Assembly (NCBI RefSeq): GCF_016097555.1
Contig: NC_054708.1
Span: 7,904,160 to 7,968,159, forward strand
DNA: 64,000 bases
Reading direction: 5' to 3'
Source: Gigantopelta aegis
Taxonomy: Eukaryota; Mollusca; Gastropoda; Neomphalida; Peltospiridae
In this document: in pieces, positions 8,845 to 60,019 of the stretch
How positions within the stretch are numbered: the stretch's first letter is position 1
Layout: each line of letters begins with the position of its first letter
Translations under genes and position numbers: made by a program
The notes under the pieces: generated by a model
The model's input: only the letters and a program-made list of their open reading frames with translations
The model's database searches: none
Told to the model about the DNA's origin: nothing

Positions 8845-22972
<14,128 letters not shown>

Positions 22973-30227: not shown

Positions 30228-30661
30228 TCACTGAACCAGAATATAACTCTTCAGACACTGTGGCAATGGTAAATGGTCCACTTTAACGAAGAGTTTACCC
30301 CTCAACTCGTCCCTCAACAAACTTCGACAGAGAGATTGCAGTGACACAGGGTTTGTTATTAAAGTCTGCAGTTCTGCCAGTATCTCGTTATCTTTGTCTT
30401 CTCTTGAATGCCATATGTGATACACCTGCTTTGCTGCCTTCAAGCCGAGTACTGGCTGTATGATAGCAAACAGCTCCTTCAAGAAGTTCAGCTGTGAGTA
30501 GGCAATGGCTCTTCGCGCCCACGTCTCATGTAGTCGGTTTCGGCTGTTGTAGTTTGCACCAGCCTGGATGAGAGTTCTAGTCACCAGGAATTCACTGTCT
30601 TTGAAATATCTTCTTGGAACATGTACAAATTTGTCCAGCTCATAACACAAAGGCATTTTAC
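30228..30661 (-). CDS. ankyrin/SOCS gene exon 6 (terminal, SOCS box)
   Basis: 144 codons plus stop, from GKMPLCYELDKFVHVPRRYF to PQCLKSYILVQ. It carries the final ankyrin-like repeat, a helical linker (FAIIQPVLGLKAAKQVYHIW) and the SOCS box. The acceptor is TTTTTTATATAG. Confidence 0.93.
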
Positions 30662-33600
30662 CTATATAAAAAAGAAAACAAAAATAACTTTTATTTGTAT
30701 CAAATATCTGGGGTTTAAAAATTGTGATAATAATTAAGGTTGTTTTGTTTTAATGCTTATTAATTTTCACATGATTTTTGTGATGTCCTGGGCACACATC
30801 TCAGCTACCTGGGCTGTCTGTCCAGGACAGTGGGTTAGTGGGTAGATGTTAGTGGGTAGATGTTAGTGGGTAGTGAGAAAGACATCAGGGTAGTGTTCTT
30901 ACACCTTATTACTGAGCAACTAGGAGGTAGTACTGTGGTTTGGACCCATAACAGCCTTATGTGTGATGGTTTAACCACTACACAACCAGCCTCAGTGGCG
31001 CAGTGGTTAAGTCATCGGACTACAGGTTGGTAGGTACAGGGTTCGCAGCCCGGTACCGGCTCCAACCCAGAGCGAGTTTTTAAGGGCTCAGTGGCGCAGT
31101 GGTTAGTCATCGGACTACAGGCTGGTAGGTACAGGGTTCGCAGCCCGGTACCGGCTCCAACCCAAAGCGAGTTTTTTAGGGCTCAGTGGCGCAGTGGTTA
31201 AGTCATCGGACTACAGGCTGGTAGGTACAGGGTTCGCAGCCCGGTACCGGCTCCAACCCAGAGCGAGTTCTTAAGGGCTCAATGGCTCAGTGGCGCAGTG
31301 GTTAAGTCATCTGACTACAGGCTGGTAGGTACAGGGTTCGCAGCCCGGTACCGGCTCCAACCCAGAGCAAGTTCTTAAGGGCTCAATGGATAGGTGTAAG
31401 GCCACTACACCCTCTTCTCTCTCACTAACAACTAACCCACTGTCCTAGAAAGACAGCTGAGGTTTGTGCCCAGGACAGCGTGCTTGAACCTTAATTGGAT
31501 ATAAGCATGAAAATAAGTTGAAATTAAATGAATGAATAGCCACTATACAACAGCTACTCAATGTTGCTTGTTTTTTCAGGAAGGGCTGGTTATACGAATA
31601 TTTAATTTATTTTACTGGCTGAAAAACAATTGTAACTTCATAACCATACAATTGCTATTATATAAGATGAATGTTTTAGAAAATACCTTTTTAATATTTA
31701 CTAATAGAACCCTTTCTTTCACAGTAATCTGACATAAAAAGACCTCATAAAACAGATAATAATAGATTTAGATTATTAAATTAATGACCCTAATTGTAAC
31801 ATTTCTTATGAACACCCACCGCTTTTATCTGTAATGATGGCCGATACCCCTGAAAACAGCAGTTTACAGATAATTTCATTACGTACTACTCGATCTTGCT
31901 TCAAGTTTTTACAGGCACAATGAAGAGCTGAAATTAAAACAAGAATAAATTATGTTTGGAGAAATCAAGTCTACAGTTTATTTCTGTTACACTTGCACAC
32001 AATAATTTTTTATTTTCTTTAAGTTTGTTTTGTTTAACGACAACACTAAACCCACTTGATTTAATAATTAATCATCAGCTACTGAGAGACAGACATTAGT
32101 AATTGTGACGAGTATTCTCCTGAGGACACCCATTACAAGTTTTATTAGTAGCAAGAGATCTTTTATATGCACTTTCCCACAGACAGGAAGGAAGGAAATG
32201 ATTTATTTAACGACACACTCAACACATTTTATTTACGGTTATATGGCGTTGGACATATGGTTAAGGACCACACAGATATTGAGGGAGGAAACCTGCTGTT
32301 GCCACTTCATGGGCTACTCTTTTCGATTAGCAGCAAGGGATCTTTTATATGCACCATCCCACAGACAGGATAGCACATACCACGGCCTTTGATATACCAG
32401 TCGTGGTGCACTGGCTGCAACGAAAAATAGCCCAATGGGCCCACTGACGGGGATCGATCCTAAACCGACCGCGCATCAAGTGAGCACTTTACCACTGGGC
32501 TATGTCCTGCCCCTCCAGAGACAGGATGGCACATAACACAGCCTTTAACATACCAGTTGGGGAGCACCGGATGGGACAGGGATTTCATTCTTCAATCCAA
32601 GCATGTCCGGCAAGTGCTGTAATACATGTTACCAGTTATATAGGTTGAGGGAGACCAAACCTGCACATGAAGTAAATAATGAAATGTAGCAAAAGATAAT
32701 TTATATACATTTTCCCCACAGGCAGAACAGTACATACCAAAGCCGTTGGTGTAACAGATGTAGAACACTAGTTAAGATGGGGGGGGGGGGGGGGGGGGGG
32801 AGGGAACAACTGGGTCCTATGATGCTCAGTGCCTCAGGTTAGTGCTCAACCACTAAGTTATATCTCTATCACTAAGCTACATCTCCACCACTAAAGCTAC
32901 ATCTCTAACACTAAGCTACATAACCACTAAGCTATATTTGAACCACTAAGCTACATCTCCACCGCTAAGCGACATTTCCATTGCTAAGCTACATCTCCAC
33001 CGCTAAGCTACATCTCCACCACTAAGCTACATCTCCACCACTAAAGCTACATCTCTAACACTAAGCTACTTCTCGCCCCAGCTAATAAAAGGAGAGAATA
33101 AACCTTGTTTTAACAGATTAGTGACTATTAATACCATTTAATAACGAGGTATCAGGTATTTGCAATTTCCCACAGACAGGATAGTCAATTTCAAGGTCTT
33201 TGATATGCCAGTCAGGAAAATCGGACATTAAATGACAAAAAATTAATAATAAAATAAAATAAACGTCACAGTGCTTGTTATACTAAGAGTGAAAACATAA
33301 AAATGTCAACCTGTTAGCCCGTCTTGATCCTTGAGACTAGCATTAATGTTCCTATCAAGTAGAATCTGCACCACGGAGAGAGCGTCACTTCCTTCACTGC
33401 TACACGCTTCCATTAGGGCAGTCCGACCTTAGTAGGAGACACAAAAGAATATGGTGATATTTTAATTAAATAGTGAATCTAACATCACATTGTAGTTTTC
33501 ACTTTACAAATTACAATTTTACTAGTTTATATACTGTATTGAAACTTGAATGTATACCATGTTTATATATATCATTTAAATTTGTTTGTATGCAACTGAG

Positions 33601-36451
33601 TGCAATAGATGTACTGTGGGCTGGAGGCCTTAAAATTGAATGAACACTTTTGCATTGTGTTGTGTTGTTGCGCTGTGTTGTTGTATTGTATTGTATTGTA
33701 TTGTATTGTATTGTATAACATCAAATTGTAGTTTTCACTTTATAAATTACAATTTTATGAGACTAGGCATTTTAAATTGAAGAAAAGAATTGAAACACGT
33801 AAAACTAGTTCGCCAATGATCACTCAAAGAATATCAATTTGCACAACTCACATTAACCGAAATAGATTGTTAATAAATTGGAAATTAAATTTTTTTTAAA
33901 TAAGTTTTAAATTGTGTAAAAATTGTTCTCCAGTTATCACTCACAAAACAACACCATGCACACTTCACACTGACTGAAATGGAAATACGTAAACTTCTCT
34001 AGATTAATACCTGCAACATCTTGTTCATTAATGGAACACCCAGTTTCCAGCAGCACTAGGACTCTTTGAGATGTTAAACTGGCTGCTATGTGCAAGGGAG
34101 TTCGACCAAATCTATCTCGAACATCGACAGAAGCACCAAAATACAACAGAGTTGTCAGTATTTCCTGAGCACCTAGAAATTAAAAATGCACCAAGAAATT
34201 AAAAAAGTACTATGATAAATTTACAATATTTATTGGCATTGGGAATATCTAGAGAATGATTATATACATGTATGCCTTTTAACAATATTCAAAATGAGAA
34301 ATGAACACAACAAAATCAGATCATGGGCTACTACAGGTGTATGACATGAATGTCTAAATGAGGTTTAGTCATGTGCACACACACCATATTTTGCCTGTTT
34401 ACATTTAAGATTTACATGCATATAAAATACACAAGAAATGACTGGCTTTCACAAATTTGACCCGATATAATATTTAAGATTGATCTTACATGTGTATAGG
34501 TTATTATTCACTATAGGCCTATTACTAGTAACCTTTATCAATATGCAAATTTAAAAAAGAAAAGAAAAAAAGAACATATTTATCTTTGTTTAATTACATA
34601 TTTTAAGCAAACATTGCTGCTTTTTAATATCAAGATGATAAACACTGTGGCACATAAATGTCCAATGGGAAGCTGTTCAATACCTACTGACATCGGTGGT
34701 GTCGTGGTTAAGCCATCAGACATAAGGCTCAATGGGTAGGTGTAAGACTGCTACACCAACATTTCTCTCACTAACCACTAACCCTCTGTTCTCAACAAAC
34801 AGCCCAGATAGCTGAGGTGTGTGACCAGAACAGCGTGCTTGAACTGTAATTGGATAGAAGCACAAAAACAAGTTGAAATGAAATGAATGAAATGTTCAAT
34901 ACCTCCTAGTAGAGGCAGACCTGCTGCGATATGGATCGGATAATTTCCTTTCTCATCCGTGAAGTTTGGATCAGTGCCCTTCCCAACGAGACGCTTAACC
35001 TTCTCCGTATTTCTCCTCTGGACAGCATCAAGAAGGTCCCGTTGATTATTAGATAGTCTGTTTTTTTTCCAGAAATCTATCTCCAATCCAGCTTCCTGTA
35101 ATTATGGCAAAAACGTACAACTTGAACATTTTACAGAAATGGTCATGAGACATGTAAGCTGTACCAGACATTTAGTGTTATTTGTTGACTGGGAAAACAT
35201 GCAAGTTTATTATTTAAAGCTCTAAATGTGTTTGTGCACTGTATTAATAGCATGATGGAAGGAATCACTTGAGATGAGTAGTTTTGTCAGCACAAATTAA
35301 ATAAATTAAAAACATAGTTACTATCACTTAATAGTTAAATAAATATTTTGTTCATTTACAATGTCTGATATATTAATATTATTATTTAGTAGCAATAAAA
35401 TAGTTCTAATCATAAATTAAAATTTGGAGTGGGGTGTAGGGTTTTTTTTTACACATGTATCCCATTCAGTGCCCCATGACTGGAAGATTAAAGGTCTTGG
35501 TATGTGTTGTCTTGTCAGCAGGAAAGTGCATTAAAATTATCCCTTGCTGTTGAAGGTTAACTTTATAATAAAATTATTAAGTATAAGCTGTACGGTTTAA
35601 ATCTATTTCACTGCATACTTTGTATTCCCAATAACAAGTACTTCAGTTTTCAAGTAAGCACTACAAAGTGTATTACAAAATATCTACTGGTATGCTAAAC
35701 GTCCAAACTTTATGCGAAAACAAGGACATCTTATATGTCATTCTAATGTTTTTTGTATGAACACTATACTGCAAATAAAAAAAATTCTGTCATTATTCAA
35801 GAGAAAAAAAAAAAATACCATACCAGTATGTCACTATTCAAAAGAGTACCTTAATTAACTCTTGGTTCTTTTTCCTTTTAAATAAAAAGCGATTTTAATG
35901 CAGGATTTTGAATAATTTTTATAAAATTTAAATAACTTTTATTGGAAATGAAAACATAAGTAACGTCATCTCCTGATATCTGACTACAACTTGGCAAAAC
36001 ATATTTTTTTAGGGGGTGGAGGTGAATCTGGTTTGAACTTTACCAGTACTTTATTATTAAATTTATCTTTAAATTTTAATTTTAAAATGTAGCTGGTTTC
36101 CTCTAAGACTATGTTATAATTATCAAATGTTTGACATCCAATAGCAGATTATTAATAAATCAATGTGGGTGCTCTAGTGGTGTCATTAAAAAACTTTAAA
36201 TTAGCTTTTCACTGCAAGATTCAATATCGAAATACAGCATCTATCGATAACAGAACAATCCTAACTATAATAATAATAATTCTTCTGATTTGCAACGTAC
36301 AGGCACTATCAGTGATATGAAATAAATAAGCAAATAAAAATGTTACTAGTGTAAGATAAAACTGCCTGCAAATAATACAAGCTACGTTTTATTTGTTCAA
36401 TATTTTATTTATAACCTTTATTTCCTGTTGTAGTTCTCTCATTGACGCCAT
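30228..36451 (-). CDS. ankyrin-repeat and SOCS-box protein (ASB-like), 6 coding exons
   Basis: The spliced CDS, in transcript order, joins 36451-36416, 35095-34903, 34172-34011, 33427-33311, 31927-31820 and 30661-30228. It is 349 codons, all introns are GT-AG and the frame is kept. Ankyrin repeats are visible as DEKGNYPIHIAAG, DRFGRTPLHIAAS, DVAGRTALMEACS, DQDGLTALHCACK and the degenerate DKSGKMPLCYEL, followed by TLIQAGANYNSRNR. The last 40 or so residues form a SOCS box: BC-box SLQSLCRSLLRDEL (Elongin B/C binding) and Cul5-box LPLPQCLKSYIL. Proteins of this design are substrate receptors of Elongin-Cullin-5-Rbx2 ubiquitin ligases, with the ankyrin part choosing the target. The specific ASB subfamily and substrate are not known. 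The start MASMRELQQEIK is the first in-frame ATG of exon 1. Convergent with SET. Confidence 0.9.
30780..30985 (-). mobile_element. type D SINE tail, partly duplicated
   Basis: The reverse complement contains CCCACTGTCCTGGACAGACA and AGGTAGCTGAGATGTGTGCC, as in the plus-strand copies at 31395-31535 and 34686-34892. Short repeats of GTGGGTAGATGTTA are present. Confidence 0.65.
30991..31395 (+). repeat. 96-bp tandem array of a SINE tRNA-like head, 4 units
   Basis: CTCAGTGGCGCAGTGGTTAA-type starts occur at 30991, 31087, 31182 and 31286. Each unit contains the head ACTACAGGCTGGTAGGTACA, a GGTTCGCAGCCCGG (B-box-like) and CCGGCTCCAACCCAGAGCGA. After the last unit a normal SINE body and tail continue to about 31535, so only the head is amplified. 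Confidence 0.9.
31396..31535 (+). mobile_element. type D SINE body and tail
   Basis: TAGGTGTAAGGCCACTACAC, CTAACCCACTGTCCTAG, GCTTGAACCTTAATTGGATA and an AAATGAATGAAT end. It is continuous with the amplified head before it. Confidence 0.8.
31820..31927 (-). CDS. ankyrin/SOCS gene exon 5
   Basis: Encodes ALHCACKNLKQDRVVRNEII then CKLLFSGVSAIITDKS. The acceptor is TTTAATTTCAG; the donor is GCG|GTGGGT. Confidence 0.9.
32020..32640 (-). mobile_element. SINE, tail type A, split by a nested SINE
   Basis: Tail and body (TTTGTTTTGTTTAACGACAA ... CTTTCCCACAGACAGG) run to 32187. After the nested copy the body resumes at AGACAGGATGGCACATAACA (32519). The far end is diverged. Confidence 0.75.
32188..32518 (-). 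mobile_element. SINE, tail type B, full length, nested
   Basis: Reads on the minus strand from GGGCAGGACATAGCCCAGTG through GGATCGATCCCCGTCAGTGG to the TTCCTTCCTT tail. A short duplication AGACAGGA (32181-32188, 32519-32526) flanks it. It is intact and little diverged, so younger than its host SINE. Confidence 0.9.
32690..32780 (-). mobile_element. SINE body fragment
   Basis: TTTCCCCACAGGCAGAACAG and TACATACCAAAGCC match the inverse body. It runs into a G tract at 32779-32800. Confidence 0.55.
32822..33085 (-). repeat. about 19-bp minisatellite derived from a SINE A box
   Basis: The repeating CACTAAGCTACATCTCCACC (minus strand: GAGATGTAGCTTAGTGG) is the A-box segment of the SINE head (GATGTAGCCCAGTGG). 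It begins where a minus-strand SINE head (CTCAGGTTAGTGCTCAACCA) should end. About 12 irregular units. Confidence 0.8.
33165..33218 (-). mobile_element. SINE body fragment
   Basis: TTTCCCACAGACAGGATAGT and GGTCTTTGATATGCCAGTCA. Probably the other half of the SINE whose head was amplified at 32822-33085. Confidence 0.6.
33311..33427 (-). CDS. ankyrin/SOCS gene exon 4
   Basis: Encodes RTALMEACSSEGSDALSVVQ then ILLDRNINASLKDQDGLT: one ankyrin repeat and the start of the next. The acceptor is CTACTAAG; the donor is CAG|GTTGAC. Confidence 0.92.
33674..33717. repeat. (TTGTA)n microsatellite
   Basis: A pentanucleotide TTGTA/ATTGT run following TTGTTGCGCTG, inside intron 3 of the ankyrin/SOCS gene. 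Confidence 0.9.
34011..34172 (-). CDS. ankyrin/SOCS gene exon 3
   Basis: Encodes AQEILTTLLYFGASVDVRDR then FGRTPLHIAASLTSQRVLVL and LETGCSINEQDVA: two ankyrin-repeat cores. The acceptor is AATTTCTAG; the donor is CAG|GTATTA. Confidence 0.94.
34686..34892 (+). mobile_element. type D SINE at the donor site of exon 2, 12-bp target-site duplication
   Basis: TGTTCAATACCT is duplicated at 34674-34685 and 34893-34904. The insert carries GGCTCAATGGGTAGGTGTAA, CAGCCCAGATAGCTGAGGTG, GCTTGAACTGTAATTGGATA and an (AAATG)n end. The duplicated target includes the AG|GTATTG 5' splice site of the minus-strand gene. Confidence 0.93.
34903..35095 (-). CDS. ankyrin/SOCS gene exon 2
   Basis: 193 nt. Encodes EAGLEIDFWKKNRLSNNQRD to GNYPIHIAAGLPLLG plus one base, holding the first ankyrin repeat. 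The acceptor is CATAATTACAG. The proximal donor GAG|GTATTG at 34903/34902 lies in a duplicated target site. Confidence 0.93.
35455..35555 (+). mobile_element. SINE body fragment
   Basis: CATTCAGTGCCCCATGACTG, GGTATGTGTTGTCTTGTC and ATTATCCCTTGCTG in order. Confidence 0.55.
36086..36190 (+). mobile_element. SINE tail fragment, type A
   Basis: ATGTAGCTGGTTTCCTCTAA, TTGACATCCAATAGCAGATT and GTGCTCTAGTGGTGTCATTA. Confidence 0.75.
36416..36451 (-). CDS. ankyrin/SOCS gene exon 1 (start codon)
   Basis: ATG to MASMRELQQEIK, with donor AAG|GTTATA. The upstream minus-strand sequence (ATTGTTTATAATATTGGCAAC) is AT-rich with no clear TATA-type promoter. Confidence 0.78.
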
Positions 36452-40690: not shown

Positions 40691-40799
40691 ACTGTGGCTA
40701 TGTATATATCCTAGGCTAATAAGGGCTGACTACCTACATGACAGTCATGTTTTGGGGAAAGTCCAGTGCAAGGCCACCACACCCATCTAAATGTTCCCG

Positions 40800-43700
40800 T
40801 GTGTAGCACAAGGTACATCTCGTCTATTATTGTGTATAATATTTACTGAGAAGTCCATAACCCGTCTCCTCTACAGACCAAGACTCACAATTACCAGGTG
40901 TGTAGCACGGGGTACATCTCGTCTATTATTGTGTATAATATTTACTGAGAAGTCCATAACCCGTCTCCTCTACAGACCAAGACTCACAATTACCAGGTGT
41001 GTAGCACGGGGTACATCTCGTCTATTATTATGTGTAATATTTACTGAGAAGTCCATAACCCATCTCCTCTACAGACCAAGACTCACAATTACCACATGTG
41101 TAGCACGGGGTACATCTCGTCTATTATTGTGTATAATATTTACTGAGAAGTCCATAACCCGTCTCCTCTACAGACCAAGACTCACAATTACCACATGTGT
41201 AGCACGGGGTACATCTCGTCTATTATTGTGTATAATATTTACTGAGAAGTCCATAACCCGTCTCCTCTACAGACCAAGACTCACAATTACCAGGTGTGTA
41301 GCACGGGGTACATCTCGTCTATTATTGTGTATAATATTTACTGAGAAGTCCATAACCCGTCTACTCTACAGACCAAGACTCACAATTACCAGGTGTGTAG
41401 CACAGGGTACATCTTGTCTATTATTGTGTATAATATTTACTGAGAAGTCCATAACCCGTCTCCTCTACAGACCAAGACTCACAATTACCAGGTGTGTAGC
41501 ACGGGTTACATCTCGTCTATTATTGTGTATAATATTTACTGAGAAGTCCATAACCCGTCTCCTCTACAGACCAAGACTCACAATTACCACATGTGTAGCA
41601 CGGGGTACATCTCGTCTATTATTGTGTATAATATTTACTGAGAAGTCCATAACCCGTCTCCTCTACAGACCTAGACTCACAATTACCAGGTGTGTAGCAC
41701 GGGGTACATCTTGTCTATTATTGTGTATAATATTTACTGAGAAGTCCATAACCCATCTCCTCTACAGGCCAAGACTCACAATTGCCACGTGTGTAGCACT
41801 GGTTACATCTCGTCTATTATTGTGTATAATATTTACTGAGAAGTCCATAACCCGTCTACTCTACAGACCAAGACTCACAATTACCAGGTGTGTAGCACAG
41901 GGTACATCTCGTCTATTATTGTGTATAATATTTACTGAGAAGTCCATAACCCGTCTACTCTACAGACCAAGACTCACAATTACCACGTGTGTAGCACGGG
42001 TTACATCTCGTCTATTGTGTATAATATTTACTGAGAAGTCCATAACCCGTCTCCTCTACAGACTAAGACTCACAATTACCAGGTGTGTAGCACAGGGTAC
42101 ATCTCGTCTATTATTGTGTATAATATTTACTGAGAAGTCCATAACCCGTCTACTCTACAGACCAAGACTCACAATTACCAGGTGTGTAGCATGGGGTACA
42201 TCTTGTCTATTATTGTGTATAATATTTACTGAGAAGTCCATAACCCATCTCCTCTACAGGCCAAGACGCACAATTGCCACGTGTGTAGCACTGGTTACAT
42301 CTCGTCTATTATTGTGTATAATATTTACTGAGAAGTCCATAACCCGTCTACTCTACAGACCAAGACTCACAATTACCAGGTGTGTAGCACAGGGTACATC
42401 TCGTCTATTATTGTGTATAATATTTACTGAGAAGTCCATAACCCGTCTCCTCTACAGACCAAGACTCACAATTACCAGGTGTGTAGCACGGGTTATATCT
42501 CGTCTATTATTGTGTATAATATTTACTGAGAAGTCCATAACCCGTCTCCTCTACAGACCAAGACTCACAATTACCACATGTGTAGCACGGGGTACATCTC
42601 GTCTATTATTGTGTATAATATTTACTGAGAAGTCCATAACCCGTCTCCTCTACAGACCAAGACTCACAATTACCAGGTGTGTAGCACGGGGTACATCTTG
42701 TCTATTATTGTGTATAATATTTACTGAGAAGTCCATAACCCATCTCCTCTACAGGCCAAGACTCACAATTGCCATGTGTGTAGCACTGGTTACATCTCGT
42801 CTATTATTGTGTATAATATTTACTGAGAAGTCCATAACCCGTCTACTCTACAGACCAAGACTCACAATTACCAGGTGTGTAGCACAGGGTACATCTCGTC
42901 TATTATTGTGTATAATATTTACTGAGAAGTCCATAACCCGTCTACTCTACAGACCAAGACTCACAATTACCACGTGTGTAGCACGGGTTACATCTCGTCT
43001 ATTGTGTATAATATTTACTGAGAAGTCCATAACCCGTCTCCTCTACAGACTAAGACTCACAATTACCAGGTGTGTAGCACAGGGTACATCTCGTCTATTA
43101 TTGTGTATAATATTTACTGAAAAGTCCATAACCCGTCTACTCTACAGACCAAGACTCACAATTACCAGGTGTGTAGCACGGGGTACATCTTGTCTATTAT
43201 TGTGTATAATATTTACTGAGAAGTCCATAACCCATCTCCTCTACAGGCCAAGACTCACAATTGCCACGTGTGTAGCACTGGTTACATCTCGTCTATTATT
43301 GTGTATAATATTTACTGAGAAGTCCATAACCCGTCTACTCTACAGACCAAGACTTACAATTACCAGGTGTGTAGCACAGGGTACATCTCGTCTATTATTG
43401 TGTATAATATTTACTGAGAAGTCCATAACCCGTCTCCTCTACAGACCAAGACTCACAATTACCAGGTGTGTAGCACGGGTTACATCTCGTCTATTATTGT
43501 GTATAATATTTACTGAGAAGTCCATAACCCGTCTACTTTACAGACCAAGACTCACAATTACCAGGTGTGTAGCACAGAGTACATCTCGTCTATTATTGTG
43601 TATAATATTTACTGAGAAGTCCATAACCCATCTCCTCTACAGGCCAAGACTCACAGTTGCCACGTGTGTAGCACTGGTTACATCTCGTCTATTATTGTGT

Positions 43701-46700
43701 ATAATATTTACTGAGAAGTCCATAACCCGTCTACTCTACAGACCAAGACTCACAATTACCAGGTGTGTAGCACAGAGTACATCTCGTCTATTATTGTGTA
43801 TAATATTTACTGAGAAGTCCATAACCCATCTCCTCTACAGGCCAAGACTCACAATTGCCACGTGTGTAGCACTGGTTACATCTCGTCTATTATTGTGTAT
43901 AATATTTACTGAGAAGTCCATAACCCGTCTACTCTACAGACCAAGACTCACAATTACCAGGTGTGTAGCACAGGGTACATCTCGTCTATTATTGTGTATA
44001 ATATTTACTGAGAAGTCCATAACCCGTCTACTCTACAGACCAAGACTTACAATTACCAGGTGTGTAGCACAGGGTACATCTCGTCTATTATTGTGTATAA
44101 TATTTACTGAGAAGTCCATAACCCGTCTCCTCTACAGACCAAGACTCACAATTACCAGGTGTGTAGCACGGGTTACATCTCGTCTATTATTGTGTATAAT
44201 ATTTACTGAGAAGTCCATAACCCGTCTACTCTACAGACCAAGACTCACAATTACCAGGTGTGTAGCACAGAGTACATCTTGTCTATTATTGTGTATAATA
44301 TTTACTGAGAAGTCCATAACCCATCTCCTCTACAGGCCAAGACTCACAGTTGCCACGTGTGTAGCACTGGTTACATCTCGTCTATTATTGTGTATAATAT
44401 TTACTGAGAAGTCCATAACCCGTCTACTCTACAGACCAAGACTCACAATTACCAGGTGTGTAGCACAGAGTACATCTCGTCTATTATTGTGTATAATATT
44501 TACTGAGAAGTCCATAACCCATCTCCTCTACAGGCCAAGACTCACAATTGCCACGTGTGTAGCACTGGTTACATCTCGTCTATTATTGTGTATAATATTT
44601 ACTGAGAAGTCCATAACCCGTCTACTCTACAGACCAAGACTCACAATTACCAGGTGTGTAGCACAGGGTACATCTCGTCTATTATTGTGTATATTATTTA
44701 CTGAGAAGTCCATAACCCGTCTCCTCTACAGACCAAGACTCACAATTACCAGGTGTGTAGCACAGAGTACATCTCGTCTATTATTGTGTATAATATTTAC
44801 TGAGAAGTCCATAACCCATCTCCTCTACAGGCCAAGACTCACAATTGCCACGTGTGTAGCACTGGTTACATCTCGTCTATTATTGTGTATAATATTTACT
44901 GAGAAGTCCATAACCCGTCTACTCTACAGACCAAGACTCACAATTACCAGGTGTGTAGCACAGGGTACATCTCGTCTATTATTGTGTATAATATTTACTG
45001 AGAAGTCCATAACCCGTCTACTCTACAGACCAAGACTCACAATTACCACGTGTGTAGCACGGGTTACATCTCGTCTATTGTGTATAATATTTACTGAGAA
45101 GTCCATAACCCGTCTCCTCTACAGACTAAGACTCACAATTACCAGGTGTGTAGCACAGGGTACATCTCGTCTATTATTGTGTATAATATTTACTGAGAAG
45201 TCCATAACCCGTCTACTCTACAGACCAAGACTCACAATTACCAGGTGTGTAGCACGGGGTACATCTTGTCTATTATTGTGTATAATATTTACTGAGAAGT
45301 CCATAACCCATCTCCTCTACAGGCCAAGACTCACAATTGCCACGTGTGTAGCACTGGTTACATCTCGTCTATTATTGTGTATAATATTTACTGAGAAGTC
45401 CATAACCCGTCTACTCTACAGACCAAGACTCACAATTACCAGGTGTGTAGCACAGGGTACATCTCGTCTATTATTGTGTATAATATTTACTGAGAAGTCC
45501 ATAACCCGTCTCCTCTACAGACCAAGACTCACAATTACCAGGTGTGTAGCACGGGGTACATCTTGTCTATTATTGTGTATAATATTTACTGAGAAGTCCA
45601 TAACCCATCTCCTCTACAGGCCAAGACTCACAGTTGCCACGTGTGTAGCACTGGTTACATCTCGTCTATTATTGTGTATAATATTTACTGAGAAGTCCAT
45701 AACCCGTCTACTCTACAGACCAAGACTCACAATTACCAGGTGTGTAGCACAGAGTACATCTCGTCTATTATTGTGTATAATATTTACTGAGAAGTCCATA
45801 ACCCATCTCCTCTACAGGCCAAGACTCACAATTGCCACGTGTGTAGCACTGGTTACATCTCGTCTATTATTGTGTATAATATTTACTGAGAAGTCCATAA
45901 CCCGTCTACTCTACAGACCAAGACTCACAATTACCAGGTGTGTAGCACAGGGTACATCTCGTCTATTATTGTGTATATTATTTACTGAGAAGTCCATAAC
46001 CCGTCTCCTCTACAGACCAAGACTCACAATTACCAGGTGTGTAGCACAGAGTACATCTCGTCTATTATTGTGTATAATATTTACTGAGAAGTCCATAACC
46101 CATCTCCTCTACAGGCCAAGACTCACAATTGCCACGTGTGTAGCACTGGTTACATCTCGTCTATTATTGTGTATAATATTTACTGAGAAGTCCATAACCC
46201 GTCTCCTCTACAGACCAAGACTCACAATTACCAGGTGTGTAGCACGGGGTACATCTTGTCTATTATTGTGTATAATATTTACTGAGAAGTCCATAACCCA
46301 TCTCCTCTACAGGCCAAGACTCACAGTTGCCACGTGTGTAGCACTGGTTACATCTCGTCTATTATTGTGTATAATATTTACTGAGAAGTCCATAACCCGT
46401 CTACTCTACAGACCAAGACTCACAATTACCAGGTGTGTAGCACAGAGTACATCTCGTCTATTATTGTGTATAATATTTACTGAGAAGTCCATAACCCATC
46501 TCCTCTACAGGCCAAGACTCACAATTGCCACATGTGTAGCACTGGTTACATCTCGTCTATTATTGTGTATAATATTTACTGAGAAGTCCATAACCCGTCT
46601 ACTCTACAGACCAAGACTCACAATTACCACGTGTGTAGCACGGGTTACATCTCGTCTATTGTGTATAATATTTACTGAGAAGTCCATAACCCGTCTCCTC

Positions 46701-46925
46701 TACAGACTAAGACTCACAATTACCACGTGTGTAGCACAGGGTACATCTCGTCTATTATTGTGTATAATATTTACTGAGAAGTCCATAACCCGTCTACTCT
46801 ACAGACCAAGACTCACAATTACCAGGTGTGTAGCACAGGGTACATCTCGTCTATTATTGTGTATAATATTTACTGAGAAGTCCATAACCCGTCTCTTCTA
46901 CAGACCAAGACTCACAATTACCACG
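40800..46925 (+). repeat. 99-bp satellite array, 62 units, open in one frame for 2,097 codons
   Basis: 62 units of 99 bp; units 13, 23, 44 and 60 lack one ATT triplet and are 96 bp. Core: GTACATCTCGTCTATTATTG, TGTATAATATTTACTGAGAA and GTCCATAACCCGTCTCCTCT. Because 99 and 96 are multiples of three and the unit has no stop in one frame, a 2,097-codon reading frame (40791-47084) results; its unit translation is CVARGTSRLLLCIIFTEKSI plus 13 residues. Variants at codon positions 1 and 2 (for example CGG/CAG/CTG, GGT/GTT/AGT, CGT/CAT/TGT) far outnumber silent ones, and the flanks show no gene signals, so it is scored as a satellite. Units 9-18 and 19-28 form a 987-bp higher-order repeat; units 36-42 match 49-55. 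Confidence 0.95.
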
Positions 46926-48400
46926 TGTGTGACATCTAATAGCTTCTGCTCATTGAGCAAAGTGTTTGTGTCATTAAATCAGGGGATAACTCTACTGTGG
47001 TTTCCAATCTTTCAACATAGACTGATGGGTTTACTGTCACTACACATCACCAGTACAACTACGTGTATACTTTTGGAATTGTAAAACCACCAAATGGAAT
47101 GTGCATCACCATATATTGAAAAAGTACGGCAGATTTTTGTAGGTTTCCAATCAGGATCATTCTTACAAATGTGCTAAATTAGAATTAAAAAACAACAACA
47201 TTTGATATATAATGTTGGATCAGGGCCTCTGCTTATCAAAGTTTAGAGTCTAGACTCCAATCTTGAATGGCGTCACACACATGCAGTTTGTATGGTGTTG
47301 CCATGGCGTTAAAGTCTCGGATTCCATTAGAACATGCATGGGGCCAGAGGGTGCATGAGAATAAATACATGTACTGAAACATGCTATTCCCATCCATTTT
47401 ATGACTAACAACAGCAAGCACTATAAAGCTTAGATGTGTTAAAATATTTTATAACTTTGACAGCACATTTTAATGTGACAACTGGAAACATGTTATATTA
47501 AAGAGAATTAACATCACGCACAACACTTGCATTTTATACCATCATCCCCACATCTCATTAATTAATTTTGGAATAGCCCTAATTCAACATATCAGGGTTT
47601 CTGCCAGGGGGAAATGGAGGGTTACTTACGTACCCTAAAATCGAAGAAATTAATTGATATATATTTTTTATTTTGCCAATAAACGATAGCAATAGAATTG
47701 CTGTTTAAAATTTGTCAAAGCGCATGGAAATCGGTGGTCATTTTCAAAACATTTCAAACCCATATTCACCTAGTAGGGGCATTTATGTTTTTTGTTTGTT
47801 TTTAATACATACCCTCAAATTATTTTCTGACAGAAAGCCTGAACATGGATTTGGTTTTACTGCCCCATTACCTAATTGTTTGTAGAATAGATTTAACACA
47901 ATGCGTGCACTTAGTACACCAGTTTCCTCCAAAAGTTTATCGGTGGGCTGTCATCTTTTTGTCTGCACTATGAAATTGGTCTGGAATTGTCTTGGAGGAA
48001 GCATAGCATTTGCCATTATGGTTTATGGCTTTTCCTCATATATAGACACAACTATCGATCAATTCCTCAGCGGTGCAATAAGAGAGAGTAATGGGCTCAT
48101 CTGGGTAACTGTTGGCTTAAATGTGTAAAATTACATTTGTCATTTCAATTGCATGTTTTTTCATTGTCATTTCTTATTTCCATTAACGAGACAAGACTGC
48201 CAGGGCGATATGGAAATGAGTTGTGCTGAGAGCCCTGTTTACACCGCAGCAGACAGGAAACAAACCTGATAGTGCGAAAATTAAATGTTTGCCTACAGCT
48301 GCTTTCCAGTACATGCATTAAGATAATTAGATGGATTTGAGGTGCTCGAGACAAAGGCTCGAATCCCCACGGTGGAGTCATTCTGTTATTGGGCTTGCTT
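46926..48400. other. intergenic region with no recognised gene
   Basis: Single-copy-looking AT-rich DNA. A 75-codon open stretch at 47901-48128 has one hydrophobic segment but no recognised family and no clear splice context. Confidence 0.4.
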
Positions 48401-51989: not shown

Positions 51990-53745
51990 TGAGTGGGATG
52001 TACCCCAGTGGTAAAGTGATCACTTGTTGAGCGTGGGGTGGGACGTAGCCCCAGTGGTGAAGTGATCACTTGTTCAGCGTGGGGTGGGACGTAGCCCCAG
52101 TGGTGAAGTGATCACTTGTTCAGCGTGGGGTGGGACGTAGCCCCAGTGGTGAAGTGATCACTTGTTCAGCGTGGGGTGGGACGTAGCCCCAGTGGTGAAG
52201 TGATCACTTGTTCAGCGTGGGGTGGGACGTAGCCCCAGTGGTGAAGGGATCACTTGTTGAGCGTGGGGTGGGACGTAGCCCAGTGGTGAAGGGATCACTT
52301 GTTGAGCGTGGGGTGGGACGTAGCCCAGTGGTGAAGGGATCACTTGTTGAGCGTGGGGTGGGACGTAGCCCAGTGGTGAAGTGATCACTTGTTGAGCGTG
52401 GGGTGGGACGTAGCCCAGTGGTGAAGTGATCAATTGTTCAGCGTGGGGTGGGACGTAGCCCAGTGGTGAAGTGATCACTTGTTGAGCGTGGGGTGGGACG
52501 TAGCCCAGTGGTGAAGTGATCACTTGTTGAGCGTGGGGTGGGACGTAGCCCCAGTGGTGAAGTGATCACTTGTTGAGCGTGGGGTGGGACGTAGCCCAGT
52601 GGTGAAGTGGTGATCACTTGTTGAGCGTGGGGTGGGACGTAGCCCAGTGGTGAAGTGATCACTTGTTGAGCGTGGGGTGGGACGTAGCCCAGTGGTGAAG
52701 TGATCACTTGTTGAGCGTGGGGTGGGACGTAGCCCAGTGGTGAAGTGATCACTTGTTGAGCGTGGGGTGGGACGTAGCCCAGTGGTGAAGTGATCACTTG
52801 TTGAGCGTGGGGTGGGACGTAGCCCAGTGGTGAAGGGATCACTTGTTGAGCGTGGGGTGGGACGTAGCCCAGTGGTGAAGGGATCACTTGTTGAGCGTGG
52901 GGTGGGACGTAGCCCAGTGGTGAAGGGATCACTTGTTGAGCGTGGGGTGGGACGTAGCCCAGTGGTGAAGTGATCACTTGTTGAGCGTGGGGTGGGACGT
53001 AGCCCCAGTGGTGAAGTGATCACTTGTTGAGCGTGGGGTGGGACGTAGCCCCAGTGGTGAAGTGATCACTTGTTGAGCGTGGGGTGGGACGTAGCCCCAG
53101 TGGTGAAGTGATCACTTGTTGAGCGTGGGGTGGGACGTAGCCCAGTGGTGAAGTGATCACTTGTTGAGCGTGGGGTGGGACGTAGCCCAGTGGTGAAGTG
53201 ATCACTTGTTGAGCGTGGGGTGGGACGTAGCCCAGTGGTGAAGTGATCACTTGTTGAGCGTGGGGACGTAGCCCAGTGGTGAAGTGATCACTTGTTGAGC
53301 GTGGGGTGGGACGTAGCCCAGTGGTGAAGTGATCACTTGTTGAGCGTGGGGTGGGACGTAGCCCAGTGGTGAAGTGATCACTTGTTGTGCGTGGGGTGGG
53401 ACGTAGCCCCAGTGGTGAAGTGATCACTTGTTGAGCGTGGGGTGGGACGTAGCCCAGTGGTGAAGTGATCACTTGTTGAGAGTGGGGTGGGACGTAGCCC
53501 AGTGGTGAAGTGATCAATTGTTGAGCGTGGGGACGTAGCCCAGTGGTGAAGTGATCGCTTGTTGAGCGTGGGGTGGGATGTAGCCCAGTGGTGAAGTGAT
53601 CACTTGTTGAGCGTGGGGTGGGACGTAGCCCAGTGGTGAAGTGATCACTTGTTGAGCGTGGGGTGGGACGTAGCCCAGTGGTGAAGTGATCACTTGTTGA
53701 GCGTGGGGTGGGACATAGCCCAGTGGTGAAGCACTCACTTGTTGC
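51990..53745 (+). repeat. 45/46-bp minisatellite of a SINE A-box head, about 38 units
   Basis: The unit GGGACGTAGCCCAGTGGTGA then AGTGATCACTTGTTGAGCGT is the first half of the SINE tRNA-like head (compare GGGACGTAGCCAAGTGGTAA at 39764). Units vary by one C (CCC/CCCC). The last unit leads into an intact short SINE at 53703-53833, its likely source. Each unit holds the palindrome GTGATCAC. Long minus-strand open frames here are repeat artefacts. Confidence 0.95.
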
Positions 53746-56859: not shown

Positions 56860-57360
56860 AGTGCCCTAGAGGAGTTTAAAGAATATTTCTTCATACTAGA
56901 TATGTCTATGTAATTACCTGTATATGTTACTACTAATATATATATGCTATGTATTGTAGTGATTTAGTGCCCTAGAGGAGTTTAAAGACTATTTCTTCAC
57001 ACTAGATACGTCTATGTAATTACCTGTATATGTTACTACTAATATATATGCTATGTATTGTAGTGATTTAGTGCCCTAGAGGAGTTTAAAGACTATTTCT
57101 TCGTACTAGATATGTCTATGTAATTACCTGTATATGTTGCTACTAATATATATGCTATGTATTTCAGTGATTTAGTGCCCTAGAGGAGTTTAAAGACTAT
57201 TTCTTCGTACTAGATATGTCTATGTAATTACCTGTATATGTTACTACTAATATATATGCTATGTATTGTAGTGATTTAGTGCCCTAGAGGAGTTTAAAGA
57301 ATATTTCTTCACACTAGATATGTCTATGTAATTACCTGTATATGTTGCTACTAATATATA
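56860..57360 (+). repeat. 104-bp tandem array, left part (about 5 units)
   Basis: GTGCCCTAGAGGAGTTTAAA recurs near 56861 and 56967, then every 104 bp. Each unit reads SALEEFKDYFFTLDMSM then TAA in one frame, and contains ATGTAATTACCTGTATATGT and TATATGCTATGTATTGTAG. The array is split by a Tc1 element and continues at 58857. Confidence 0.93.
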
Positions 57361-58854
57361 CTCTTCAAAAAAAGAAACGCAAAAGGGTACAAATGGGTTA
57401 TAACTCCGATTTTATGTTTCCTACCGGTTCATGCTTTGTGAATATAAGGTCATTGCATGTCCCAAACACATTCCCACGGTTACATTCGATAAAATGCAGC
57501 TACTGTACAATAAAGTTCCAAAATGTGAATATTCGCAAAAACGCAGCCACGTGCAAACCATGTCACCACTGCACGTGCGTTGTCTACACGTGCAACATGA
57601 ACACTGACAGTATAAAAGTGCAGGGTGTTCGCTTGCCTGGCCTCTGTATCTGGCCGACAGTTGACAATCCAGGACATGCCACGTCTCAGTGAACCGCAGA
57701 GAAACAATGCCATCGGCCGACTAGACGCAGGCGAATCCAGAACGGCCGTTGCCAGGGCATTCCATGTGTCCCCAAGCACCATCTCCAGACTGTGGGACCG
57801 TTACCAGCAACATGGATCAACACGTGACCTCCCTAGATCCGGTCGACCACGGGTCACTACCCCCGGGCAGGACCGCTACATCCGGGTACGCCACCTTCGG
57901 GAACGATTGACTACTGCCACCTCCACAGCCGCAGCCATACCAGGTTTGCGCAGGATATCCGACCAGACCGTACGGAACCGCCTACGTGAGGTAGGAATTC
58001 GTGCCAGACGTCCAGTTCGAGGTGTCATCTTAACACCACAACACCGTCGACTCCGACTGCAGTGGTGCCAGATTCATCGACAATGGCCTCAACTGTGATG
58101 GAGACAGGTGTGGTTCAGTGACGAGTCCCGATTTCTGCTCCGACGTCATGATGGAAGATGTCGCGTGTATAGGCGTCGTGGTGAACGTTATGCGGCAAAC
58201 TGTGTGCAGGAAGTGGACAGATTCGGCGGGGGTAGTGTCATGGTGTGGGCAGCCATCTCACACACTGGCAGAACTGACCTGGTCCACGTGCAGGGCAACC
58301 TGAATGCACAGGGCTACATTGACCAGATCCTCTGGCCACACATCGTTCCAGTTATGGCCAACGCCAACGCAGTGTTCCAACATGACAATGCCAGGCCTCA
58401 CACAGCACGTCTCACAACGGCTTTCCTACAGAACAACAACATTAATGTCCTTCCTTGGCCATCGATATCACCGGATTTGAACCCAATTGAGCATCTATGG
58501 GACGAGTTGGACCGACGCCTCCGACAGCGACAACCACAGCCCCAGACCCTGCCCGAGCTGGCAGCAGCCTTGCAGGCCGAGTGGGCCACCATCCCCCGGG
58601 ACGTCATCCGTACTCTGGTTGCTTCAATGGGCAGGCGGTGCCAGGCAGTTGTCAACATACGCGGAGGCCACACCTGGTATTGACTCCAGATGACCTTGAC
58701 CTTGGTGGTGTGTCCTATCACTTACTCACAATGGACTAGAGTGAATTGTGAACAATCCTGCAACATTTGGTAATTATCGGACTCACCATTCAATAATTAA
58801 ATCAATTCTCCAAATGTTACGACAATGTGGTTTTGCGTTTCTTCTTTTGAAGAG
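57361..58854 (+). mobile_element. Tc1-type DD34E DNA transposon, complete but with one in-frame stop
   Basis: 1,494 bp with 24-bp terminal inverted repeats differing at one base (CTCTTCAAAA...GAAACGCAAAA; 57361-57384 and 58831-58854). TA flanks both ends as the target-site duplication. It carries one transposase frame (57676-58683). Its coding part is far richer in GC than its surroundings, which suggests a recent arrival. It sits inside the 104-bp array. Confidence 0.95.
57676..58683 (+). pseudogene. Tc1-like transposase, interrupted by one TGA
   Basis: About 335 codons, the usual Tc1 length. The N-terminal helix-turn-helix pair includes RLDAGESRTAVARAFHVSPS and SRLWDRYQQHGS, then the GRPR AT-hook-like RSGRPRVTT. 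A second domain (TVRNRLREVGIRARRP) follows. The catalytic domain has FSDESRF (first Asp), FQHDNARPHTA (second Asp) and NPIEHLWDEL (Glu), with 34 residues between the second Asp and the Glu: DD34E. One in-frame TGA at 58096-58098 separates WPQL from WRQVWFSDES; no frameshift was found. The start is set at MPRLSEPQ (57676); an upstream in-frame ATG at 57625 adds 17 atypical residues. As it stands the gene should not yield full-length protein unless the stop is read through or is an assembly error. Confidence 0.93.
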
Positions 58855-58856
58855 TA

Positions 58857-59190
58857 TATATGCTATGTATTGTAGTGATTTAGTGCCCTAGAGGAATTTA
58901 AAGACTATTTCTTCACACTAGATATGTCTATGTAATTACCTGTATATGTTGTTACTAATATATATGCTATGTATTGTAGTGATTTAGTGCCCTAGAGGAG
59001 TTTAAAGACTATTTCTTCATACTAGATACGTCTATGTAATTACCTGTATATGTTACTACTAATATATATGCTATGTATTGTAGTGATTTAGTGCCCTAGA
59101 GGAGTTTAAAGAATATTTCTTCATACTAGATACGTCTATGTAATTACCTGTATATGTTACTACTAATATATATGCTATGTATTTCAGTGA
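58857..59190 (+). repeat. 104-bp tandem array, right part (about 3 units)
   Basis: GATTTAGTGCCCTAGAGG recurs at 58877, 58981 and 59085, 104 bp apart. The array ends at TATTTCAG|TGATTCGGGG (59186), after which sequence is unique. AATAAA occurs twice at about 59229-59241. Confidence 0.93.
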
Positions 59191-60019
59191 TTCGGGGCCC
59201 CAACCCTAACACTATGTATTCGTCTGGGACAATAAACAATAAAGATTATATATTACCAAAAAAAAACCCCAAAACACCCAACAACAACAACTGGATAACA
59301 GTCACTGATATTGTTAATAAAAAATGCATTTAATATATAGTATTAGTTGTAAAAATGCTGTATTACAAAAAAACACATTTTATAGTGGCAGCAAACTCAG
59401 GGCAGTCTGTTTAATACCATAGTAATTACATTTTATATTTTATTTAATAGCTTTTATTACGAAAGTAATTTATACAGAACTCTTACTCTGATATGATAAA
59501 TTAAGATAATTAGAACTAGCAAGAAATAAATGGCTTAACTTGGCCACGATGTCGTCAATTTGATAATTACATTTTGTGTGTGGTTGGTTTAGTAGTATTA
59601 ATATCTCGTTACCTACAACTGTCTGGAAAAAGAAAAAAGGAATTATGTCGGGATGTGTTGCTTTATTAGTGTATATATAAATCAATATTTGGTTGTTTTA
59701 TCATAGACACTGAACAATGGTCCATGGAACATTAATGTATAGAAGTTTTATCAGGTGAATTGGCCATGTATAGCAGGTGCTTTATCCTACCTATTTGCAA
59801 ATTACTTTAGTCCATAATGGAAGCAGTAGTTTTGAAGCATGAACATACACACGTATGATTGCACATTTGCTTTGTACATGTCAGCACAGAGGTGTGGTGT
59901 TGGGGTCTGAAGTTCTTTGAACCATCCTGCTCCAATGAATTTTGATTATGACCTGACCTCCCCCCCCAAAAAAAAACAACAACAACAACAACAAAAAAAC
60001 ATCGATCACCACAGTCTAG
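59191..60019. other. intergenic region with no recognised gene
   Basis: AATAAACAATAAAGATTATA at about 59230-59249 could be a 3' end of a transcript crossing the 104-bp array. Otherwise the region is AT-rich; an (AAC)n tract lies at about 59977-59993. Confidence 0.35.

What the first reader, a model, noticed from the sequence alone, without database searches (positions are those of the whole stretch)
34674..34904. SINE target-site duplication has copied a 5' splice site
The 12-bp duplication TGTTCAATACCT around the SINE at 34686-34892 contains, on the minus strand, AG|GTATTG: the donor of exon 2 of the ankyrin/SOCS gene. The gene now has two identical donors about 219 nt apart, one each side of the SINE. 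Use of the distal one would pull antisense SINE sequence into the mRNA. A retroposon creating a duplicate splice site by its target duplication is a neat and seldom documented event.
Basis: partly seen in the sequence, partly recalled or inferred. Interest (0 to 1): 0.75.

Follow-up and report, generated by a model that had tools for sequence, protein, structure and literature searches.

The report
SINE insertion duplicated a splice donor
In a deep-sea vent snail gene, a small jumping element landed across an exon-intron border and copied the splice signal to its far side, so the gene now has two near-identical cutting signals, one giving a normal protein and the other a message with an early stop.

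Summary
The window matches Gigantopelta aegis: the 349-aa spliced product is 100% identical to its ASB10-like protein. Exon 2 of this minus-strand gene ends at 34903 with donor GAG|GTATTG. A 207-bp SINE (34686-34892), antisense to the gene, is flanked by a perfect 12-bp target-site duplication holding exon 2's last two bases and the intron's first ten. The donor is thus present twice, 219 nt apart, identical from -2 to +10 and differing at -3. The public protein and homolog spacing support use of the upstream copy. The downstream copy would keep phase but retain antisense SINE with two in-frame stops (117-aa product). A weak lead: the upstream donor sits in a predicted exon-end hairpin that the duplication did not copy (opening 9.5 against 4.1 kcal/mol). 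Not tested: RNA junctions, a SINE-free orthologue, SINE copy number (genome search did not complete). The kind of event is known: the dog merle SINE is an acceptor-side counterpart, and some introners recruit splice sites from target duplications. A clean, mostly ordinary case.

The parts
34674..34685 (-). target-site duplication copy downstream in the gene, holding the duplicated donor TAG|GTATTG (cut 34684/34683)
34893..34904 (-). target-site duplication copy at the exon end, holding the donor GAG|GTATTG (cut 34903/34902) used in the public protein
34686..34892 (+). 207-bp SINE with A-box-like head, an internal deletion across the middle that takes out the B-box-like stretch seen in the intron-5 relative, and ATGAA-type tail; antisense to the gene
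   Evidence: A and B boxes judged by eye against a recalled consensus
34903..35095 (-). coding exon 2 (193 nt)
34173..34902 (-). intron 2 (730 nt) if the upstream donor is used; 511 nt if the downstream donor is used
34778..34780 (-). first in-frame stop (TAG) met if the downstream donor is used; a second lies at 34751-34753
34900..34917 (-). predicted hairpin UGCCUCU-ACUA-GGAGGUA at the exon end that pairs the upstream donor (-7.8 kcal/mol)
36416..36451 (-). coding exon 1
34011..34172 (-). coding exon 3
33311..33427 (-). coding exon 4
31820..31927 (-). coding exon 5
30228..30661 (-). coding exon 6 with SOCS box

Best explanation
A SINE was retroposed, probably by target-primed reverse transcription, into a staggered break that spanned the exon 2/intron 2 border, in antisense to the gene. 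Repair of the 12-nt stagger duplicated AG|GTATTGAACA. The upstream copy keeps the full exon context and remains the working donor. The SINE and the second donor lie in the intron and are normally spliced out, so the insertion was tolerated because the duplication preserved the donor. The second donor is at most a minor alternative 5' splice site whose use would give a message with a stop 94 nt before the exon junction, expected to be removed by nonsense-mediated decay. Shown: both copies, reading frame, exon end, stops. Inferred: mechanism of insertion, splice choice, decay.
For: Perfect 12-bp direct repeat exactly at both ends of a SINE-like insert. The spliced product through the upstream donor is an intact 349-aa frame, 100% identical to a public G. 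aegis protein (cluster of 1 member sequence), with ankyrin and SOCS box domains. Spacing from the ankyrin His to the FGA-type motif is 24 aa here and 24-28 aa in the 8 of 9 aligned homologs that have that His; the ninth, P0007, has a different N-terminal part and was left out. The downstream donor would make the spacing 97 aa with two stops; the higher-scoring in-exon alternative CAG|GTCTGC (exon end 34921) would make it 18 aa. The upstream donor scores slightly higher on a recalled donor matrix (3.30 against 2.13) and is followed by U-rich antisense SINE tail (21 of 40 U at +7 to +46, against 14 of 40 after the downstream copy).
Against: No RNA data. How the public model was made is not known to me; the genome paper masked repeats before gene prediction (passages read), which would bias against a SINE-containing exon. 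SRSF1-type proteins favour the donor nearer the 3' splice site (human data, passages read), and the upstream donor is predicted to be less accessible at all four window sizes tried. Both point towards some use of the downstream copy.
Confidence: 0.8

Rival explanations
1. The downstream copy is used appreciably, making the locus a SINE-born alternative 5' splice site and a decay (poison) switch: the upstream donor is locked in an exon-end hairpin, the copy is free of it.
For: Opening the donor (-2 to +6) costs, for flanks of 20, 40, 70 and 100 nt, 8.22, 9.46, 8.51 and 8.38 kcal/mol upstream against 1.47, 4.10, 5.75 and 4.72 downstream. At 40 nt, 3.3% of 425 GT sites in the gene (the site itself counted) cost at least as much as the upstream one and 43% as much as the downstream one. 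Of 1000 random synonymous recodings of five codons, 29 are at least as closed as the real sequence. The two donors are otherwise alike; the frame is kept and stops follow.
Against: The whole 286-nt fold is no more stable than shuffles (z -0.39, 62 of 200 shuffles as stable). The hairpin is predicted also in the joined empty site (7.18, 8.66, 7.93 and 6.53 kcal/mol at the four flanks), so the gene presumably spliced through it before. Exon 2 would grow from 193 to 412 nt. No such protein found. The hairpin comparison was made after seeing the fold.
Confidence: 0.15
2. The SINE is exonised as a separate exon: an antisense acceptor TTACAG (AG ending at 34844) joined to the copied donor at 34683, giving a 160-nt SINE exon after a 59-nt mini-intron.
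For: The acceptor CTATCCAATTACAG|T is the best-scoring AG inside the insert (rank 55 of 370 AGs; the five accepted acceptors rank 1, 4, 30, 36 and 37; recalled matrix).
Against: The mini-intron is very short, the acceptor scores below all five accepted ones, and four other GT sites inside the insert (34782, 34775, 34691, 34771) and one at its border with the duplication (34687) outscore the copied donor.
Confidence: 0.03
3. The 12-bp repeat is chance and the insert is not a retroposon with a target duplication.
For: The SINE family could not be named, and the genome search did not complete.
Against: A relative 81% identical over 166 nt lies in intron 5 of the same gene, and the repeat lies exactly at the ends of the insert and nowhere else in the window.
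Confidence: 0.02

Closest known systems
Canine merle SINE in PMEL (PMC7349775; passages read)
   Same: tRNA-derived SINE, antisense to the gene, inserted across an intron-exon border, with a 15-bp target-site duplication at the splice site and alternative splicing that retains SINE sequence
   Different: There it is the acceptor side (intron 10/exon 11); the alternative site is a cryptic acceptor inside the SINE, the reading frame is maintained through the added stretch, and an effect on coat colour is described. Here it is the donor side, the donor itself is copied, the added stretch has stops, and no effect is shown.
Introners that recruit a splice site from their target-site duplication (PMC9860276; passages read)
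   Same: Target-site duplication supplies a copy of a splice signal
   Different: Introners create new introns, and most families with evidence look DNA-based; this is a retroposon at an existing intron and makes no new intron
Antisense SINE (Alu-type) exonisation (recalled, and as summarised in PMC7349775, passages)
   Same: Antisense SINE beside an exon, with cryptic splice sites
   Different: The extra donor comes from the target duplication, not from the SINE body

Membership tests
SINE retroposon insertion with target-site duplication | short direct repeat exactly flanking the insert | tested here: met
   12 of 12 bp
SINE retroposon insertion with target-site duplication | insert belongs to a dispersed repeated family | tested here: met
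   within the window only: related pieces in intron 5 at 31380-31536 (81% over 166 nt), 30784-30845 (84% over 62 nt) and 30953-30987 (89% over 35 nt); genome-wide copies not tested because the search did not complete
SINE retroposon insertion with target-site duplication | tRNA-derived head with A and B boxes | tested here: inconclusive
   A-box-like TGGTGTCGTGGTTAAG by eye against a recalled consensus; the B-box-like stretch is missing relative to the intron-5 copy; ARAGORN and Rfam (gathering threshold) found nothing in the window
SINE retroposon insertion with target-site duplication | SINE-free orthologous site with one copy of the 12-mer | not testable with these tools
Duplicated functional 5' splice site | upstream copy is a real donor | tested here: met
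   frame, 100% identical public protein, homolog spacing; no RNA evidence
Duplicated functional 5' splice site | downstream copy is used in RNA | not testable with these tools
   no RNA reads; the 117-aa product not found in the protein database
Introner | insertion creates a new intron | tested here: inconclusive
   exon 2 and exon 3 are separated by 511 nt of other sequence besides the 219 nt added by the insertion, so an intron was already there; the intron position in relatives was not seen
Ankyrin repeat and SOCS box protein | ankyrin repeats plus C-terminal SOCS box | tested here: met
   Pfam PF12796, PF13637 and PF07525 above their cut-offs

The most novel reading that the evidence does not exclude
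By copying the donor but not the exon arm that pairs with it, the SINE gave the gene a second donor with less structure and nearer the 3' splice site, turning a constitutive exon into a two-donor switch whose second state carries a stop; a natural test of 5' splice-site choice with matched sequence and different structure.
Probability: 0.12. Interest if true: 0.6.

Novelty: new member of a known kind. Interest (0 to 1): 0.38.

Why it matters
Insertions at exon borders are usually expected to break splicing. Here the target-site duplication itself protects the gene by leaving a full donor on the exon side, and it leaves a matched pair of donors that differ mainly in context. If the second is used, it shows how a retroposon can add an alternative splice site in one step, without later mutations. 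By rough count (assumed about 150,000 introns, the published 1.15-Gb genome, five 12-bp placements that cover -2 to +6) about 0.07% of random insertions would do this, so some 65 cases per 100,000 insertions are expected before selection: it could be studied in bulk rather than as a curiosity.

Tried and rejected
Rejected: another exon-2 end (CAG|GTCTGC, exon end 34921) scores higher on the recalled matrix (5.48) and keeps the frame, but would remove 6 aa from a stretch whose length is kept in homologs. Rejected: strong RNA structure of the SINE as the decider (z -0.39). Rejected: the idea that the copied donor is the best cryptic donor in the insert; AGG|GTTAGT at 34782 (6.08) and GTG|GTTAGT at 34775 (5.52) score higher. 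Led nowhere: structure database by sequence (the 60 shown of 407 matches are other ankyrin-repeat proteins, many of them designed), Rfam, tRNA search, a gastropod non-LTR paper (PMC11203168, passages: nothing usable on this SINE), a listing of SINE/mollusc papers (10 of 29 listed, none opened for it), and literature phrases for duplicated donors (0 papers each in the held library; 8 papers, of which only the merle paper was opened). The donor and acceptor matrices are recalled human-like frequencies, not trained on this snail. In one search I aligned the first 10 of the 120 proteins listed (274 found); more distant mollusc SOCS-box proteins in that list were not aligned. P0009 and P0010 bear the same locus name and are not independent.

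Full report
What is there. Read on the minus strand, the gene has six coding exons: 36451-36416, 35095-34903, 34172-34011, 33427-33311, 31927-31820 and 30661-30228. Joined, they give an open frame of 349 aa. It is 100% identical over its whole length to a public protein of the vent snail Gigantopelta aegis, named ankyrin repeat and SOCS box protein 10-like, and carries ankyrin repeats and a SOCS box above the Pfam cut-offs. By the exon lengths the introns after exons 2, 3, 4 and 5 are all phase 1.

The insert. Between 34686 and 34892 lies a 207-bp element with an A-box-like head (by eye), a middle GGCTCAATGGGTAGGTGTAAG and a GAAATGAAATGAATGAAATG tail, whose last TG may belong to the duplication. 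A related copy in intron 5 of the same gene matches it at 81% over 166 nt (31380-31536), further pieces lie at 30845-30784 (84% over 62 nt) and 30987-30953 (89% over 35 nt), and 22 nt of the middle recur exactly in another repeat at 18294-18315. Aligned with the intron-5 copy, the insert lacks the stretch that holds the B-box-like sequence. The break is near GGCT in both, so a deletion by short homology is possible (my reading). The family could not be named: Rfam and ARAGORN gave nothing, and the own-genome search did not complete.

The duplication. TGTTCAATACCT flanks the insert exactly, at 34674-34685 and 34893-34904, and occurs nowhere else on either strand of the window. In gene sense it reads AGGTATTGAACA: the last two bases of exon 2 and the first ten of intron 2. 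The donors are therefore GAG|GTATTG (34903/34902) and TAG|GTATTG (34684/34683). They agree at every position from -2 to +10 and differ at -3. Chance is remote: 1.4e-7 per fixed offset by composition. The rate of identical 12-mers at random 150-350-nt spacings in this repeat-rich window, three tandem-repeat stretches left out, is 204 of 2,431,825.

Which donor is used. The upstream donor keeps an intact frame and gives the public protein. I aligned the first ten proteins listed, the snail's own and nine homologs. Eight of the nine have the ankyrin His: six have 24 or 25 aa from it to the FGA-type motif, the others 26 and 28, against 24 here. The ninth, P0007, differs at its start and was left out, though its aligned columns also hold 24; P0009 and P0010 share one locus name. 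The downstream donor would give 97 with two in-frame stops (34780-34778 and 34753-34751), ending the protein after 117 aa. A search with that 117-aa product found 3 candidates, none with E at or below 0.001; such a product would rarely be annotated, so this is weak. On a recalled matrix the upstream donor scores 3.30 and the downstream 2.13, ranks 52 and 81 of 425 GT sites in the gene; the five accepted donors rank 1, 47, 52, 94 and 99. Both are thus within the range of this gene's accepted donors. The upstream copy is followed by U-rich antisense SINE tail (21 of 40 U, against 14 to 17 after the other donors and the copy), which in animals can help weak donors through TIA-type proteins (recalled knowledge).

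Against that reading. Two things favour the downstream copy. First, of two competing donors the one nearer the 3' splice site is favoured by SRSF1-type proteins, while hnRNP A1 favours the other (PMC5585400, passages read); this is human data. Second, the upstream donor is paired in a predicted exon-end hairpin, UGCCUCU-ACUA-GGAGGUA (34917-34900, -7.8 kcal/mol). Opening it costs 9.46 kcal/mol with 40-nt flanks; 3.3% of 425 GT sites (itself counted) cost at least as much. The downstream copy, which lacks the exon arm, costs 4.10. The order is the same with flanks of 20 (8.22 and 1.47), 70 (8.51 and 5.75) and 100 nt (8.38 and 4.72). Of 1000 random synonymous versions, 29 were at least as closed. 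In the joined empty site the hairpin is also predicted (8.66 at 40 nt), so on this prediction it predates the SINE and did not stop splicing. The region as a whole is not unusually structured (z -0.39, 62 of 200 shuffles as stable). This comparison was made after seeing the fold and is a lead only.

Most likely history and function. Target-primed reverse transcription at a 12-nt stagger that happened to span the border; the stagger was copied, so the exon side kept its donor signal and the gene survived. As seen from the upstream donor, intron 2 grew from 511 to 730 nt (lengths). The second donor is probably silent or a minor site whose product would be removed by decay (stop 94 nt before the junction, by coordinates). 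Decay rules in snails are assumed.

Known and new. The dog merle SINE is an acceptor-side counterpart: antisense tRNA-derived SINE, 15-bp target-site duplication at the intron 10/exon 11 border, with alternative acceptor use that retains SINE sequence (PMC7349775, passages read). Some introner families recruit donors or acceptors from their target duplications (PMC9860276, passages read). In the held library I found no paper describing a SINE that copied a donor this way (searches; of the eight papers listed only the merle paper was opened, and of the three listed only PMC9860276). The library lacks most subscription papers, so this is not proof of absence. The G. aegis genome papers give 1.15 Gb with 21,438 genes (PMC7895826, passages) and 1.29 Gb with 25,601 genes and 64.17% repeats (PMC7736800, passages). 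With an assumed 150,000 introns, about 0.07% of random insertions would place a 12-bp duplication over a donor, so some 65 per 100,000 insertions are expected before selection. It is a clean, well-formed instance of a known kind of event.

Noticed in passing
30991-31389: Within intron 5 of the same gene, the head of a related SINE is repeated about four times in tandem (96- or 104-bp units), followed by one copy's tail part (31380-31536).
   Followed up: partly
57667-58680 with 56860-57360 and 58855-59192: Tc1-type transposase-like frames (HTH_Tnp_Tc3_2 and DDE_3) separated by a stop at 58096-58098; both sides carry arrays of the same 104-bp unit in different rotation, as if the element sat in, or carried, a satellite.
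   Followed up: partly
40799-46930: 62 copies of a 99-bp satellite; since 99 is a multiple of 3 it yields a probably spurious 2097-aa open frame.
   Followed up: no
51993-53744: About 39 copies of a 45-bp unit that by eye resembles the head of another SINE-like repeat in intron 4 (about 32510-32460).
   Followed up: no
34921: A higher-scoring, frame-keeping alternative donor CAG|GTCTGC lies 18 nt inside exon 2; not supported by homolog spacing.
   Followed up: partly
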